Below are positions 101-6,113 of a stretch of DNA of 6,113 bases, piece by piece. The DNA is from JALTID01 sp027004335 [NCBI: bacterium] (lineage in GTDB: Bacteria > JALSQH01). A program made the position numbers and the translations under genes. Where the stretch lies: contig JALTID010000242.1 in the NCBI GenBank assembly GCA_027004335.1, positions 1-6,113 of the forward strand. The letters run 5' to 3'. Under the pieces are notes generated by a model that was not told the origin of the DNA, did not search any database, and saw only the letters and a program-made list of their open reading frames with translations. Each line of letters starts with the position of its first letter. Position 1 is the stretch's first letter.

Positions 101-622
101 ATGGGGGAAAAGGAAGCTTTACTTATTATTGATATGTTAAATGATTTTGTAAGAGAAGGAGCCCCCCTTGAGGTTCCTTCTACAAGGGAGATAATACCTG
201 TAATTAAGGAAGAGATTGAAAAAGCAAGGTCAGCAGGAAATCCCATTCTTTATATTTGTGATGCCCATGATCCTGATGATCCGGAATTTAAGATATGGCC
301 TCCTCATGCTGTAAAAGGAACAGAAGGAGCAAAGGTGATAGATGAACTTGCCCCGCAGAGTAGGGATATAATAGTTGAAAAGACCACCTATAACGGGTTT
401 TATAAAACCGATCTTGAGGAAATTCTCCGGGATATTGGGGTTACTACTGTGAGATTAACAGGCTGTGTAACTCACATTTGCGTGCTTTATACCGCAGCTG
501 GTGCAAGAGTAAGAGGTTTTGATGTTAAAGTGGTTGAGAGGGGGGTCGCTCCCCTTTCTCTGGAGGACCATCAGTGTGCTTTGAGACAGATGAAAGAAGT
601 TTTAAAGGTGGATATTGTTTAA
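101..622 (+). CDS. pncA: Nicotinamidase (isochorismatase-fold cysteine hydrolase)
   Basis: This 173-residue cytoplasmic enzyme is predicted to deamidate nicotinamide to nicotinate and ammonia, the first step of the bacterial NAD salvage route. The whole fold is present. The catalytic triad is visible as Asp11 (in LLIIDMLNDF), Lys94 (in VEKTTYNGF) and Cys127 (in GCVTHICV, with the usual cis-peptide site at Val123-Thr124). The metal site typical of nicotinamidases is Asp54-Ala-His56 plus His69 in WPPHAVKGTEG. Length is normal for the family and there is no signal peptide. The isochorismatase superfamily also holds isochorismatases and other amidases, but the metal-site motif and the pncB gene 20 bases downstream make nicotinamidase by far the best assignment. 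The ATG is fixed by an excellent ribosome binding site. Confidence 0.93.
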   Translation: MGEKEALLIIDMLNDFVREGAPLEVPSTREIIPVIKEEIEKARSAGNPILYICDAHDPDDPEFKIWPPHAVKGTEGAKVIDELAPQSRDIIVEKTTYNGFYKTDLEEILRDIGVTTVRLTGCVTHICVLYTAAGARVRGFDVKVVERGVAPLSLEDHQCALRQMKEVLKVDIV

Positions 623-1893: not shown

Positions 1894-4779
1894 ATGAATT
1901 TTCATAATAGCAGGAATATCTTATCGGCTCTGATATTTCTCTTTGTTTTTTTACTTATAATGAGTGGTTGCAGTGGAGGCGGGATCCAGAATGGATTATC
2001 TACCTCTTATGCAACATATGTGGATAGTGAAGATATGCTAATTGGAGGTCCTTCTTCTCAGGGGGCAATAGGAGATATTTTAATTTATAATAATGTGGCA
2101 AGATTTATTATTAAGGCAACAGATTATCCTTCTCCTGTTCCTCTGAGGGGTGAAATAATTGATGCTGATGTCAGAAGGATTCCCGGTGAGAGTGGTGAAG
2201 ATTCACTAAATGGAGTTCTTTTTTATTACTACCCGAGACATTATATTGTACCTGATTCCTTTTTAAGGGGACAGGGAAAGATTTCTATTATTGATGATGG
2301 AACACTTTCAGGTGTTCCTGATGTGAGGGTTACTGGTAAGGATGAATATTATCCTTTGGGAATTACCCTTACACCCCCTCATGTGAATGTTAAAGCTTTA
2401 GAGCAATCCCTTCCACTTAATTTTATAATTGATTATTCTCTTTTTCCTGATTCTCCTTGCTTGCAGGTAAAAGTGGTAGTCCAAAATAATTCTGCTTCAG
2501 CTGAATATATTTACCCTGGAATAATGGTTCTTCCCGGGCCGGGTAAATTCTTTTCCGGGGGATATGGTTTTGGTGATCCAGGTCAGAAGGGTCCATTTAA
2601 CAACATAATTTATCTTGCAAAGGAATTCCATGATGTTACTTTTGGCTTTTATCCTGGTAGCATGGTAACTAAACCTCTTGCTGATGAAGGCGTTGTATCA
2701 GGAGAAGATGGTTATGCTTTGTATTCTCCAGGGGATGGAAAAACTCCTCTGAGAGTTACGATTGATGGAAATTCTACTCAAACTTTTGTATACGAGGTAT
2801 GTGCTGTTAAAGGTTATTCGGGAGAGTTTTATTCATATCTTGTGAAAAAGTTTAAATTGCTTGAAACGACTGTGGATGGGAATGCCTGTTTAACCAATGG
2901 TAATGACAGAATGGAGAGTGATAGTAGTGGAAATAAGAGAAAAATTTGCACTACTCCACAGGATATAGAAAAGGGGATAAGTGGTGTGGAAAACAAGGGG
3001 GTGGAAGGCACTGATGTTTTTATTGAAGATGGATCTGGTAATGTAATTGCCCATACAAAGACAGGAAATGATTCTGCTGAATATTACAGAATGTTTACTG
3101 AATTTGATCCCTTTTACCTTTATAAAACTATTTATACTGGTTTTTACCATTTTGATCTCCCCGGGAAAAATTACGATGTTGTTGCTCTTAAAAGGAACTG
3201 GGCTATTCCTACTCCTCAATTTCTTATAATTTTTCCTCCTTCAAGTCAAGGTGGAAATGCCCTTGTGGAAATTGACCATGCTGATTTTGTTTTTTCATCT
3301 CCCGTTACCCTTGATGTTTTTGCTAAAGAATTACCTGCTATTCCTTCCTCCGCAAGGGTGGTGATAAGTTCAAAGGATTTTTATCCAGCTTCGGTTACAG
3401 GAATGCTTGATAAGTTTGGTTTTACTTACTACCATCCTTACAGTGGGAAAGTTACAGAGGTATATTTTGTGGATTCTTCTGGGCATCTCCTCCTTAATCT
3501 TGCTAACGGAAAATATGATTTTGTTGCAGATAAAGGGGTAGAATATAATCAGGTTACAGGCACAGTTAACTTGAACCAATCTCTTGTGATTTTATTAAAA
3601 TTTAAAAAGGTCCTGGATGAGGGGGAGTATAGGAATATTGATCCATTTGTTACCAGTTATTCTTTTGTACAGGATTTTTATAATAAGTCTCTTGCATTAA
3701 ATGCATTTTCCATTGATGATGCAATTATTTTTGAGAATAATTTACTTCCCTCCACATGGGAGACATCAGTTCCCTCAATTTTCGGATCTGTTATCAGTAG
3801 AGATGATGGAACATTTGCTCTTTACCCTGTGAATAAAAAAGATTATGATAATTTTGAGAATGTAGATGATGTTTCTTTGAAGGATCTTTTTAAATTAAGC
3901 TCTAATTCGGTTATTCTTGACCCTTCTTCTCCTTCCTCATATTTCAACAGATTATCCGCAACTGTTGATTTTAATTCAGGTAAAATAAGACCTTCTGATT
4001 ACGATAATTCTTTTATTTTTGTTCAAATCTTTCCTTCAATGAACCCTAAAGAGTCTCTTCTATGGTGGTTTAGGCTTCTTCAGCTTACTACAGGCGGGAA
4101 AAAGGGAACATTTGTTTTTCATCCTTTTATAGCAGGTTCTTTTGATAATGATCCCATTTATAATCCACCAGGGCTTATGAGGATGTATGTTAATACCGGG
4201 AAAATTTCAGGTGATCTGATAAGAAATGAGAATTGTTCAAAAGATGCAATAGGAAGTGATTTTGACCAGCTTTTATGCCGAATGAGGGAAGGAGTCTCTA
4301 CCGCGGGAAGATTTCTGTTTTTCTCTGTTTCTTTAACCTCCACAGGGAAAAAAGAAGCTATTCCTGGAGAGGTGATTTCGTTAGGCTCAGGAGATAAACT
4401 TTATTTGAATATTGATGTGCAGAGCCCTGTATGGGCAGGATTCAACAAAATTTATGTTTTTGATGGCCTTCAGGATTATGGAAACGATGTGACTGATCCT
4501 TTTGCATCAGCATATTCTATGAGTGTGACACCCACAGTTGTATCTGTTGGTGATAAAAAAAGTATGGCAAGGTATGAGTGGAAAAGGGTATTTGAGTATC
4601 CCTATAATATCAGTAACAAGGCAGATTCCTGGTGTGTGGTGTTTGTTTCTGGTGAGAATGATGCCAGTGGGTATCCAGAATTGAAATCTCTGGGTATTTC
4701 CAATCCAGTTTTTATTGACAGTGATACCACGCCCGGGTACAATCCACCCTGTCCAGGAGCATTTTGTCCCAGCAAATAA
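1894..4779 (+). CDS. Secreted lipoprotein, CehA/McbA-like PHP homologue with apparently lost active site
   Basis: This 961-residue protein starts with a lipoprotein signal peptide: a charged head, a hydrophobic stretch at 9-23 and a lipobox ending SGC with the acylated Cys at 26, then a Gly-rich linker. It should be anchored in a membrane facing outside the cytoplasm. The body follows, by recalled family pattern, large secreted CehA/McbA-type metallohydrolases: an N-terminal beta domain (GAIGDILIYNNVARFII, EIIDADVRR, about 50-320), a carboxypeptidase-regulatory-like segment (about 370-435, with DLPGKNYDVVAL), a second beta segment ending in ANGKYDFVADKGVEY (537-551), then a PHP-like region (about 580-805) and an end domain with the usual SNPVFIDSD near 936-943. 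The expected metal motifs are altered: HxHS is FVTS (585-588), TDHN is IFEN (612-615) and GHFxxxP is GTFALYP (639-645). Catalysis is therefore doubtful and its substrate or ligand is unknown. Several Cys occur in the exported part, including the PCPGAFCPSK end. It shares its transcript with smc. Confidence 0.7.
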   Translation: MNFHNSRNILSALIFLFVFLLIMSGCSGGGIQNGLSTSYATYVDSEDMLIGGPSSQGAIGDILIYNNVARFIIKATDYPSPVPLRGEIIDADVRRIPGESGEDSLNGVLFYYYPRHYIVPDSFLRGQGKISIIDDGTLSGVPDVRVTGKDEYYPLGITLTPPHVNVKALEQSLPLNFIIDYSLFPDSPCLQVKVVVQNNSASAEYIYPGIMVLPGPGKFFSGGYGFGDPGQKGPFNNIIYLAKEFHDVTFGFYPGSMVTKPLADEGVVSGEDGYALYSPGDGKTPLRVTIDGNSTQTFVYEVCAVKGYSGEFYSYLVKKFKLLETTVDGNACLTNGNDRMESDSSGNKRKICTTPQDIEKGISGVENKGVEGTDVFIEDGSGNVIAHTKTGNDSAEYYRMFTEFDPFYLYKTIYTGFYHFDLPGKNYDVVALKRNWAIPTPQFLIIFPPSSQGGNALVEIDHADFVFSSPVTLDVFAKELPAIPSSARVVISSKDFYPASVTGMLDKFGFTYYHPYSGKVTEVYFVDSSGHLLLNLANGKYDFVADKGVEYNQVTGTVNLNQSLVILLKFKKVLDEGEYRNIDPFVTSYSFVQDFYNKSLALNAFSIDDAIIFENNLLPSTWETSVPSIFGSVISRDDGTFALYPVNKKDYDNFENVDDVSLKDLFKLSSNSVILDPSSPSSYFNRLSATVDFNSGKIRPSDYDNSFIFVQIFPSMNPKESLLWWFRLLQLTTGGKKGTFVFHPFIAGSFDNDPIYNPPGLMRMYVNTGKISGDLIRNENCSKDAIGSDFDQLLCRMREGVSTAGRFLFFSVSLTSTGKKEAIPGEVISLGSGDKLYLNIDVQSPVWAGFNKIYVFDGLQDYGNDVTDPFASAYSMSVTPTVVSVGDKKSMARYEWKRVFEYPYNISNKADSWCVVFVSGENDASGYPELKSLGISNPVFIDSDTTPGYNPPCPGAFCPSK

Positions 4780-4780
4780 C

Positions 4781-4784
4781 AGGA
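4781..4784 (+). promoter_or_regulatory. Cramped ribosome binding site of smc; probable translational coupling
   Basis: Only AGGA at 4781-4784 precedes the smc ATG at 4786, one base away and too close for efficient independent initiation. The lipoprotein stop (4777-4779) is in the same frame 6 bases upstream, so ribosomes finishing the lipoprotein probably reinitiate here. The ATG is nevertheless right because MRLTKLYLNGFKSF is the standard SMC N terminus. Confidence 0.5.
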
Positions 4785-4785
4785 A

Positions 4786-5832
4786 ATGAGACTTACAAAA
4801 CTTTATCTCAACGGCTTTAAGTCATTTGCGGAACCTACTCATCTAATTTTTGAGCGGGGGATTACTGCAATAGTTGGTCCCAATGGAAGTGGAAAAAGCA
4901 ACATTGTAGATGCTATTAAATGGATCATGGGCGAGAGAAGAATAAAGAATCTCAGGGGGAGTGTTGCTGAGGATCTCATTTTTGCTGGAAATGACAATGT
5001 GAGGAGGTCAAACATTGCTGAGGTTGGAGTTCTGTTTGAGGATGAGAATGAGATAGAAGTTTTGGGTAAGGGAAAGTTTTCAACCGTTGAAGTTAAAAGA
5101 GTTTTGTATAGGGGGGAGAGGAGTTTTTTTTATATAAATAATTCACGGGTTCTTGAGAAGGAAGCTGAGTATTTTTTCAATACTTCTGCAAAGTTATCAA
5201 AGAGATATGCAATAGTAGAGCAGGGAGAAGTAGAGGCAATTGCTCTTATGTCTCCCAGAGAGATAGCAAGAATGATTATGGACGCTGCGCAGGTGGGGGT
5301 CTTTCTGCAAAACAAGGTTGATGCTGAAGCGGAACTGGCTGATGTTAGAAGAAGACTTGAAGAAATAGATCCATACCTTTCGGAGAAAAAGCTTATCAGG
5401 GATAAGTTAGCTCTGGAGGTTGAGAAAAAACTCAAGTATCAGGAATTGGAGATTTCTGTTAAGAGATTAATGGTAGGAATTAATTTAAGAAAGTATAAGG
5501 AGTTAAAAGCAGAACTGGATTCTATTACCGAGAGAAAGGAAAAATTGCTTTTGGAAATTCAAAGTAAAAAGGCTGAATCAGAGATGATTAATAATAACCT
5601 GATTGAAATTGGCCGTGAACTTAATGATGTTATTCAGAAATATGAAGATGTAAGCCACGAAAAAGGAGAAGTAGAAAAAAAATTGCTTGAAACAAATTTA
5701 AAGATGAAGGGGCATGAAAGGGAAAAAAATGATTATGAAACATGCGGGAACTATATATATTGCATTAAGTCTCATTGTGTTAATGGCTTGCAGACTAAAT
5801 GCTACTTCACCTACGCCGTTCGGGTCAGATAA
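4786..5832 (+). CDS. smc: SMC chromosome-partitioning ATPase, N-terminal part only, broken near codon 318
   Basis: SMC proteins are cytoplasmic ABC-type ATPases that dimerise, bind ScpA/ScpB and compact and separate chromosomes. The N-terminal half of the head is complete: KLYLNGFKSFA (5-15), Walker A GPNGSGKS (31-38), DAIKWIMGE (42-50), the arginine-loop region LRGSVAEDLIFAG (56-68) and the Q-loop IVEQGEVEAI (143-152). A Lys/Glu-rich coiled coil starts near 180. The segment after the Q-loop reads MDAAQVG where most bacterial SMCs have EAAG followed by I/V, a mild divergence. A full protein is about 1,100-1,200 residues with hinge, return coil, signature and Walker B. Here the coil ends at about residue 318 and is followed by 30 Cys/Tyr-rich residues that do not resemble SMC, in DNA of higher GC. 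The annotated end at 5832 is therefore not a natural C terminus; the real SMC part is about 4786-5740. The gene follows the lipoprotein by 6 bases. Confidence 0.9.
   Translation: MRLTKLYLNGFKSFAEPTHLIFERGITAIVGPNGSGKSNIVDAIKWIMGERRIKNLRGSVAEDLIFAGNDNVRRSNIAEVGVLFEDENEIEVLGKGKFSTVEVKRVLYRGERSFFYINNSRVLEKEAEYFFNTSAKLSKRYAIVEQGEVEAIALMSPREIARMIMDAAQVGVFLQNKVDAEAELADVRRRLEEIDPYLSEKKLIRDKLALEVEKKLKYQELEISVKRLMVGINLRKYKELKAELDSITERKEKLLLEIQSKKAESEMINNNLIEIGRELNDVIQKYEDVSHEKGEVEKKLLETNLKMKGHEREKNDYETCGNYIYCIKSHCVNGLQTKCYFTYAVRVR
5729..5760. other. Probable chimeric junction inside smc
   Basis: Upstream of this zone the DNA is AT-rich (hand count about 30% GC for 5461-5760) and encodes SMC coiled coil. 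Downstream it is about 51% GC (5821-6113), uses CGG, CGC, CGA and CCG codons, and encodes a different protein in a different frame. No inverted repeat, target duplication or transposase is visible. A run of A (5723-5729) and the ATGATTATGAAA stretch are possible sites of microhomology. An assembly or cloning chimera is the simplest explanation; a real rearrangement is possible. The exact breakpoint cannot be fixed from the sequence alone. Confidence 0.7.
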
Positions 5833-6113
5833 TCCGCTGACGATAGAACCGGAAATCAGTCATTATCTGGATCAGATTGCAACGTCAACGCGGGACAGGA
5901 TGCTATTGAATGGCGAGTGGCGCATAAGCAACGCGACCAAGCTACCACCGCTTAATCCGAATGACAAAAAACAGCAGACCGACCCGACACAGGCTTTCGC
6001 GCCCCCTCCGTTGAATGAAACACCCCCTGCTGACGGTTGGGAAACAAAGACAGTTCCATTGCACAAGTACAATTCCCGAAGAGGGCTGGATTGGTACCAC
6101 AAGCAATTTGATG
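5735..6113 (+). CDS. N-terminal part of a lipoprotein resembling glycoside hydrolase family 2 (partial)
   Basis: A frame different from smc is open from ATG 5735 to the window end (126 codons plus one base). It begins with a clear export signal: MKHAG, a hydrophobic stretch of about 12 residues, then LMAC with Cys at 19, a plausible lipobox. After a Pro/Ser/Thr-rich spacer, residues 53-62 read RDRMLLNGEW, and residues 102-125 read GWETKTVP (from 101) followed by LDWYHKQF (118-125). This spacing of LNGEW, a W-x-x-x-x-VP strand and WYxxxF matches the N-terminal sugar-binding jelly-roll domain of family 2 hydrolases such as beta-galactosidases and beta-glucuronidases. The catalytic domain would lie beyond the window, so the substrate is unknown. 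In-frame ATGs at 5714 and 5729 are alternatives, and no strong ribosome binding site decides between them. Base composition differs from every other gene here, so it probably comes from another organism. Confidence 0.6.
   Translation, partial: MKHAGTIYIALSLIVLMACRLNATSPTPFGSDNPLTIEPEISHYLDQIATSTRDRMLLNGEWRISNATKLPPLNPNDKKQQTDPTQAFAPPPLNETPPADGWETKTVPLHKYNSRRGLDWYHKQFD

What the first reader, a model, noticed from the sequence alone, without database searches (positions are those of the whole stretch)
3625..4308. PHP-like domain of a CehA/McbA-type lipoprotein with all recognisable metal motifs replaced
Seen: lipoprotein residues about 537-805 follow the order of features that I recall from secreted CehA/McbA-family metallohydrolases: a G-x-YD..A.(K/R)G.EY strand, an L.(K/R)VLD..G linker, D..V.S, a G.F..YP strand, VILDPSSPSSYF where NHPR...YF is expected, WWFRLLQ where a DWF.LL helix sits, MRMYV where PRTYV is expected, and (R/L).G...AGRF where a GR..TNGPF turn is expected. 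At the metal positions HxHS is FVTS (585-588), TDHN is IFEN (612-615), GHF is GTF (639-641), NHP is DPS (676-678) and the GNSDxH region reads AGSFDND (747-753). Loss of every histidine while the scaffold is kept suggests a pseudoenzyme used for binding or structure. The alignment is from memory, so it is inference until run.
Basis: partly seen in the sequence, partly recalled or inferred. Interest (0 to 1): 0.65.

Follow-up and report, generated by a model that had tools for sequence, protein, structure and literature searches.

The report
Surface enzyme relic lacking its metals
A bacterial surface protein keeps the body plan of a known family of metal-using enzymes but has lost every residue that would hold the metal, and relatives with a similar loss were found in two other bacterial groups, so a dead enzyme seems to have been kept for another job, probably more than once.

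Summary
Window 1894-4779 encodes a 961-aa lipoprotein. With its only held orthologue (45% identity) it aligns co-linearly with CehA/McbA-type PHP metallohydrolase lipoproteins from other lineages (profile-profile Prob 100, E 1.8e-43, 825 columns). All nine metal-ligand positions are replaced in both orthologues (0 of 18 cells; 161 of 162 kept in 18 intact relatives), while 25 of 52 cells at other conserved PHP columns are kept. One His remains in the region; ten intact domains have 8-12. Neither genome of the lineage has a CehA/McbA match above cut-off.

The loss is not a one-off. Homologues occur in 36 of 40 genomes of a second phylum and 7 of 7 of a third; the 35 and 5 examined keep 0-3 and 1-4 of nine ligands. 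One common clade of all ligand-poor proteins is mildly rejected (AU p 0.03): separate losses are likely, not proven.

Best reading: a pseudoenzyme surface lipoprotein kept as scaffold or binder. Structure prediction failed (pLDDT 36 and 31), so fold and job are inferred. Novelty: new variant of a known kind.

The parts
1894..4779 (+). CDS of the 961-aa lipoprotein
   Evidence: orthologue of 949 aa in G001, 45% identity over the whole length
1894..1971 (+). signal peptide with lipobox-like LIMSGC, Cys26 (residues 1-26); orthologue has LVSC
   Evidence: by eye on the sequence; lipobox rule recalled, no predictor run
1999..2679 (+). conserved N-terminal domain (residues 36-262), uncharacterised, shared with intact PHP proteins and with metallophosphoesterase-like proteins
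   Evidence: no PDB match at E <= 1 with its profile
2680..3618 (+). middle part (residues 263-575), aligned with the part of intact relatives that holds carboxypeptidase-regulatory-like stretches and the strand just before the PHP region
   Evidence: colinear alignment; three of three intact relatives match PF13620 there, one of them below the curated cut-off; the window protein does not
3619..4347 (+). PHP-like region (residues 576-818) without metal ligands
3646..3654 (+). HxH position: F585, V586, T587 (F, I, E in the orthologue)
3670..3672 (+). third motif-I ligand (D/H) position: Q593
3733..3738 (+). DH of TDH: E614, N615 (D, Y in the orthologue)
3790..3792 (+). GxE glutamate position: V633 (F in the orthologue)
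3811..3813 (+). GHF histidine position: T640 (N in the orthologue)
3919..3921 (+). NHP histidine position: D676 (D in the orthologue; the 60-way alignment shifts this stretch and reads S and D)
4141..4149 (+). DxH of SDxH: F750, D751, N752 (M, S, S in the orthologue)
4348..4776 (+). C-terminal domain (residues 819-961) as in the intact proteins, with ISNPVFIDSD..GYNPPCPG near its end
   Evidence: (residues 820-961 alone against the full intact profile: E 8e-12)
101..622 (+). neighbour: isochorismatase/nicotinamidase-like protein
   Evidence: Pfam PF00857
643..1803 (+). neighbour: nicotinate/quinolinate phosphoribosyltransferase-like protein
   Evidence: Pfam PF02749, PF01729; same gene order in G001
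4786..5832 (+). neighbour: N-terminal part of an SMC-like protein, starts 6 bases after the lipoprotein stop codon; matches the orthologue only to 5694
   Evidence: Pfam PF02463

Best explanation
The gene encodes a surface-anchored lipoprotein descended from a CehA/McbA-type PHP metallohydrolase lipoprotein. Its PHP-like region has lost all nine metal ligands and is therefore very probably not a metal-dependent hydrolase. It is kept by selection as a pseudoenzyme: the N-terminal domain, the middle part and the C-terminal domain stay, and the PHP scaffold between them probably serves as a structural module or as a ligand- or partner-binding module. Shown here: homology by profile-profile comparison, co-linearity, ligand loss in both held members of the lineage, the same place before smc in both, and the recurrence of ligand loss in two other phyla. 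Inferred: the PHP fold, lipidation and surface location, loss of catalysis, and the binding or structural job.
For: Full-length profile-profile match to 10 intact proteins, Prob 100, E 1.8e-43; residues 1-300 alone E 3e-22, residues 820-961 alone E 8e-12, PHP region alone E 7e-5 with 0 of 200 shuffles reaching its score. PHP region against the ligand-poor homologues of the second phylum: Prob 96, E 2.3e-9. Ligands kept: 0 of 9 in each of the two orthologues; intact relatives 161 of 162 cells in 18 proteins, the one miss being an alignment slip in L102, whose His is present by eye. Other conserved columns kept: 25 of 52 cells against 0 of 18 ligand cells, Fisher p 1e-4. His count 1 (window) and 3 (orthologue) against 8-12 in 10 intact domains. 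Both reading frames are open over the whole length. In the PHP region codon position 3 is 36% identical against 64% at position 2, and fourfold sites at identical amino acids match in only 8 of 23, so synonymous change is near saturation while 37% of amino acids remain. No CehA/McbA match above cut-off in either genome. Same order NAPRT-like gene, lipoprotein, SMC-like gene in both.
Against: No usable structure model (mean pLDDT 35.6 and 30.6). Single-protein HMM scans of the window protein find neither PF02811 nor NF038032. With a larger intact profile the PHP-only match gets weaker, not stronger (Prob 39, E 3e-4), and the PHP-only local alignment starts near residue 630, so the placing of HxH and TDH rests on the whole-protein alignments. 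In the window pair the PHP-like region is the least conserved part (37% identity against 51% N-terminal, 41% middle, 57% C-terminal), which fits relaxed constraint as well as a new job. Only two members of this lineage are available, and the window's genome is 80% complete, so an active copy could be missing from it.
Confidence: 0.77

Rival explanations
1. The region between the conserved N- and C-terminal parts is not a PHP domain at all; an unrelated sequence replaced it, and the likeness to PHP landmarks is chance.
For: No HMM of Pfam or NCBIfam recognises it; two AlphaFold runs give no fold; the PHP-only match to intact domains is modest (Prob 39-63).
Against: Score 33-38 against shuffle maxima of 23; Prob 96 against ligand-poor PHP domains that are themselves well supported (E 2.8e-50 against intact PHP, and 40 of 40 ligand-poor homologues of the two other phyla match NF038032 at E <= 0.001); the match lies between the flanking domains, in order.
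Confidence: 0.1
2. It is still an enzyme: a metal is bound by retained or new acidic residues (D583, E614, D676), or the mechanism needs no metal.
For: Three positions of the old motifs are acidic in both orthologues; the Asp before HxH is Asp in 31 of 35 and that of TDH in 34 of 35 ligand-poor homologues of the second phylum.
Against: None of the nine ligands remains and only one His is left in the region. The Asp before HxH and the Asp of TDH are not direct ligands in the PHP scheme (recalled), and they are kept in lineages that lost the ligands, so a scaffold role suffices.
Confidence: 0.1
3. The domain is a decaying relic: only the N- and C-terminal parts matter and the PHP-like part drifts as a spacer.
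For: It is the least conserved part in the window pair.
Against: Both frames are open, 37% of amino acids persist at near-saturated synonymous sites, and clusters such as SSYF, WFRLLQ, FHPxI and PPGL are identical. In the second phylum the ligand-poor PHP region is more conserved than the N-terminal and middle parts in all seven pairs compared, with NG86 dN/dS of 0.07-0.19 in the four pairs where it could be computed.
Confidence: 0.12

Closest known systems
CehA/McbA family metallohydrolase (NCBIfam NF038032), here as surface proteins with an N-terminal extension (for example L005, L023, L024)
   Same: same order of signal peptide, N-terminal domain, middle part, PHP region and C-terminal domain, aligned over 825 columns
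   Different: no metal ligands (0 of 9 against 9 of 9), and not found by the family HMM
PHP domain of E. coli DNA polymerase III alpha subunit
   Same: a PHP domain that lost metal ligands and is kept for structure (PMC3666897, abstract read)
   Different: an intracellular replicase that, by the abstract, lost several ligands; here all nine are gone, in a surface lipoprotein
Ligand-poor CehA/McbA-type proteins of the phyla of G013 and G099 (found here)
   Same: same architecture, same kind of loss, Asp of motif I and of TDH mostly kept
   Different: their PHP regions still match NF038032 (40 of 40), and changed ligands are often Arg/Lys (88 of 296 and 15 of 35 changed cells); the window pair has no Arg/Lys there (0 of 18)

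Membership tests
CehA/McbA family metallohydrolase (NF038032) | score above the curated cut-off of 80 bits | tested here: not met
   no match at E <= 10
CehA/McbA family metallohydrolase (NF038032) | homology over the whole architecture of lipoprotein members | tested here: met
   hhalign Prob 100, E 1.8e-43, 825 columns
CehA/McbA family metallohydrolase (NF038032) | PHP metal ligands HxH, D/H, TDH, E, GH, NH, DxH | tested here: not met
   0 of 9 in the window protein and in its orthologue; ligand scheme recalled
CehA/McbA family metallohydrolase (NF038032) | hydrolase activity | not testable with these tools
   no experiment possible
PHP superfamily (Pfam PF02811) | match to the Pfam model | tested here: not met
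   no match at E <= 10, whole protein and residues 516-961
PHP superfamily (Pfam PF02811) | PHP fold | tested here: inconclusive
   AlphaFold mean pLDDT 35.6 and 30.6
PHP superfamily (Pfam PF02811) | profile-profile similarity of the region alone above shuffled controls | tested here: met
   score 38.0 against a maximum of 23.5 in 200 shuffles; 33.3 against 23.0 with the larger profile
bacterial lipoprotein | signal peptide with lipobox cysteine | tested here: inconclusive
   LIMSGC at residues 21-26 (Met at -3 is not the classic residue), LVSC in the orthologue; by eye, no predictor run

The most novel reading that the evidence does not exclude
A surface metallohydrolase lipoprotein has been turned into a core, non-catalytic protein independently in at least three bacterial phyla, and in two of them (not in the window's lineage) the lost metal site was rebuilt with arginines, so that an anionic ligand once held by metals may now be held by side chains: a family of catalytically dead surface receptors, some of which current annotation models would call metallohydrolases.
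Probability: 0.3. Interest if true: 0.75.

Novelty: new variant of a known kind. Interest (0 to 1): 0.6.

Why it matters
In this lineage a dead enzyme is kept with no detectable active CehA/McbA copy in the two held genomes, and ligand-poor relatives are present in most or all held genomes of two further phyla (36 of 40 and 7 of 7 with a homologue; ligands examined in 35 and 5). That points to a conserved non-catalytic job at the cell surface. There is also a practical point: all five ligand-poor proteins examined in the third phylum score above NCBI's cut-off for 'CehA/McbA family metallohydrolase' although they keep only 1-4 of 9 ligands, so annotation by model alone would name dead domains as enzymes.

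Tried and rejected
Pfam, NCBIfam and PDB sequence searches with the window protein alone: no relative. The one genome-contig scan, with the two-row alignment, found only the G001 orthologue, record JALSQH010000223.1. One viral-contig scan with 10 intact PHP domains found no relative (seven further scans were allowed and not used), so the alignments for structure prediction held two rows; both AlphaFold jobs failed, and fold search was not run because a low-confidence model gives meaningless matches.

The N-terminal-domain survey of 386 genomes gave hits in 28: 14 with intact PHP (18 proteins), 8 ligand-poor (window and G001 included), 5 with a metallophosphoesterase-like part in place of the PHP part, and 1 chance hit in an alpha-mannosidase-like protein (L110); the last two classes were called by eye on the sequences. 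L033 was a chance hit without a long open frame. I considered that all ligand-poor proteins go back to one loss. The tree built without the PHP columns puts the window pair among intact proteins, but on branches without a star (93 and 89). Holding window + second phylum together gives AU p 0.021, all ligand-poor 0.0325, window + third phylum 0.065, not rejected. These are quick trees with long branches, and the groups were named after seeing the data, so independent loss is likely, not shown. Arg/Lys replacement as a general rule was rejected for the window itself (0 of 18 cells). YN00 failed for most pairs, so NG86 values were used, and several pairs were saturated. Rows left out before the 60-row counts: fragments L169, L170, L171 (genomes G426, G423, G408), and the metallophosphoesterase and chance rows L031, L033, L034, L035, L097, L098, L109, L110.
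Full report
What was checked. The finding covers residues 578-805 of a 961-aa ORF at 1894-4779. The window is contig C242 of a 1.5-Mb genome, 80.2% complete. The ORF has a lipobox-like LIMSGC ending at Cys26 (by eye).

Relatives. Of 59 genomes searched with the protein, besides the window's own, one (G001, same family, other genus) holds a full-length orthologue with 45% identity, and G015 gave a short N-terminal match. The G001 copy is record JALSQH010000223.1. A vent-deposit paper uses JALSQH01 as the name of a proposed phylum with 3 MAGs (PMC9793634, two passages seen); linking the record prefix to that phylum is my inference. In both genomes the order is NAPRT-like gene, lipoprotein, SMC-like gene; G001 has an extra 177-aa ORF on the other strand between the first two.

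Homology to CehA/McbA lipoproteins. The G015 protein has 1012 aa and all PHP motifs, and it scores 107.8 bits on NF038032 (cut-off 80). With a profile of the two orthologues, 13 of 386 genomes (own and G001 included) gave hits, most of the others to the N-terminal part of proteins of about 900-1200 aa. Ten intact PHP proteins (L005, L023-L030, L032) were aligned and compared with the orthologue pair: Prob 100, E 1.8e-43, residues 12-953. Piece by piece: residues 1-300 E 3e-22 and 820-961 E 8e-12 against the full profile, 578-818 against the PHP profile E 7e-5 (Prob 63, score 38.0). Of 200 column shuffles the best scored 23.5, and the reversed region 16.7. With 18 intact sequences the PHP-only score fell to 33.3 (Prob 39; best of 200 shuffles 23.0); against the ligand-poor domains of the second phylum it was 64.0 (Prob 96, E 2.3e-9) and against those of the third 39.5 (Prob 72, E 3.3e-5). 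hhalign E-values are for one comparison.

Metal ligands. Nine ligand positions were read from the intact proteins (that these residues are ligands is recalled PHP knowledge). Intact: 161 of 162 cells in 18 proteins; the one miss is L102, whose sequence has the His but is shifted in the alignment. Window protein 0 of 9, orthologue 0 of 9. The partner of some gap-flanked positions differs between the 12-way and the 60-way alignment (third motif-I ligand in the orthologue, N or G; NHP His, D676 or a neighbouring Ser), but neither gives a ligand residue of the expected type. Without any alignment of single positions: the region has one His (H743) against 8-12 in ten intact domains; the orthologue has three. 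Conserved non-ligand columns (26 that are at least 80% conserved in the intact set) are kept in 25 of 52 cells of the pair, against 0 of 18 ligand cells (Fisher p 1e-4). Kept in both are D583 (before HxH), G631, G639, P645, F684, F707, W725, L729, S749 and G760; E614 is Asp in the orthologue.

Selection. In the pair, the PHP-like region is 37% identical (N-terminal 51%, middle 41%, C-terminal 57%), with codon positions 1/2/3 at 55/64/36% identity; fourfold sites at identical amino acids agree in 8 of 23. So amino acids are held while silent sites are near saturation, but the region is the least constrained part of the protein. No match to NF038032 above cut-off exists in G000 or G001; the weak matches lie in frames of 223-279, about 580 and 1148 aa, sizes that I read as other PHP proteins (inferred, not tested). 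G000 is 80% and G001 97% complete.

Beyond the window. A profile of the N-terminal domain hit 28 of 386 genomes. Reading the C-terminal halves: intact PHP in 14 genomes (18 proteins), ligand-poor PHP in 8 (window, G001, three of family f99, three of family f13), metallophosphoesterase-like in 5, chance in 1. In the phylum of G013, 36 of 40 genomes have a homologue, including 20 of 20 at least 90% complete and at most 5% contaminated; in the phylum of G099, 7 of 7. Of these, 35 and 5 proteins were aligned; G408, G423 and G426 were left out as fragments. Ligands kept of nine: in the G013 phylum 0 in 19, 1 in 11, 2 in 3, 3 in 2 proteins; in the G099 phylum 1, 2, 2, 4, 1. Yet the motif-I Asp is kept in 31 of 35 and 5 of 5, the TDH Asp in 34 of 35 and 5 of 5, and 61% and 75% of other conserved cells. 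Their PHP region matches the intact PHP profile at E 2.8e-50 and 3.8e-41, though these sub-alignments were cut from one common alignment. Independent of that, all 40 (their C-terminal halves) match NF038032 at E <= 0.001; the five of the G099 phylum are over the cut-off, while the four G013-phylum proteins whose scores I saw are under it. So these are PHP domains without a complete metal site, and L167 with 4 ligands looks like a stage of loss.

Selection there (G013 phylum only): four pairs give PHP dN/dS (NG86) of 0.066, 0.073 (dS 2.3, near saturation), 0.194 and 0.148; three other pairs gave no value. In all seven pairs the PHP part is more conserved in amino acids than the N-terminal and middle part.

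How many losses. On a quick tree of 60 proteins without the PHP columns, the window pair lies among intact proteins (unstarred branches), the 35 of the G013 phylum form one group (SH-aLRT 99) and the 5 of the G099 phylum another (100). Holding together window + G013 phylum: AU p 0.021; all ligand-poor: 0.0325; window + G099 phylum: 0.065. Long branches are present and composition differs between rows, so I take three losses as likely, not established.

A side pattern. Where ligands changed, the new residue is Arg or Lys in 88 of 296 cells in the G013 phylum against 20 of 353 changed cells at other conserved columns, and in 15 of 35 against 1 of 32 in the G099 phylum. His to Arg is one mutational step and related sequences are not independent, so this is a lead to an anion-binding pocket, no more. 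The window pair does not show it (0 of 18).

Mechanism. Most likely the lipoprotein is exported, lipidated and held at the surface by Cys26, with the PHP-like part as a non-catalytic module between conserved flanking parts; it may pack against them or bind a ligand or partner. Steps shown: homology, order, ligand loss, retention in two genera. Steps inferred: fold, location, loss of catalysis, binding. Both structure predictions failed.

What is known. The E. coli Pol III PHP domain is the precedent for a PHP domain that lost metal ligands and keeps a structural role (PMC3666897, abstract only). Searches of the paper library for CehA/McbA/metallohydrolase (7 of 7 listed), PHP domain + pseudoenzyme + metal (none), PHP domain + pseudoenzyme (none) and PHP domain/lipoprotein/metallohydrolase/CehA (15 of 82 listed) show no paper whose title or opening of the abstract describes ligand-less CehA/McbA lipoproteins; no bioRxiv preprints are held and most subscription papers are missing.

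Verdict. It is a new variant of a known kind (PHP pseudoenzyme), made more interesting by its recurrence.

Noticed in passing
L100, L101, L103, L104, L105, L108, L135-L168 (phyla of G013 and G099): Ligand-poor CehA/McbA-type proteins in two other phyla (homologue in 36 of 40 and 7 of 7 genomes, ligands examined in 35 and 5); the five of the G099 phylum pass the NF038032 cut-off and would be annotated as metallohydrolases.
   Followed up: yes
same loci, PHP ligand columns: Lost ligands are often replaced by Arg/Lys (E of GxE is Arg in 29 of 35, His of NHP is Arg in 20 of 35 in the G013 phylum), more than at other conserved columns.
   Followed up: partly
L031, L034, L035, L097, L098, L109: The same N-terminal domain sits in front of metallophosphoesterase-like sequence instead of PHP, in five genomes (called by eye), so this uncharacterised domain is joined to at least two kinds of hydrolase; its profile has no PDB match.
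   Followed up: partly
window 5695-6113: The SMC frame matches the orthologue only to 5694, and the rest of SMC is not clearly found elsewhere in the genome (only a weak 27% match on C36); another open frame with a signal-peptide-like start and no Pfam match runs from 5714 off the contig end. Either a misjoin in the assembly or a real break.
   Followed up: partly
window 4779-4786; L003:4335-4338: The lipoprotein stop codon lies 6 (window) and 2 (G001) bases before the smc start codon, so the two genes are probably transcribed together.
   Followed up: no
L101, L103, L104: In family f13 of the second phylum the ligand-poor lipoprotein lies near what look like purL, mtnA and efp (named by eye from the sequence starts) and after a 325-413-aa ORF without a Pfam match above cut-off.
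   Followed up: no
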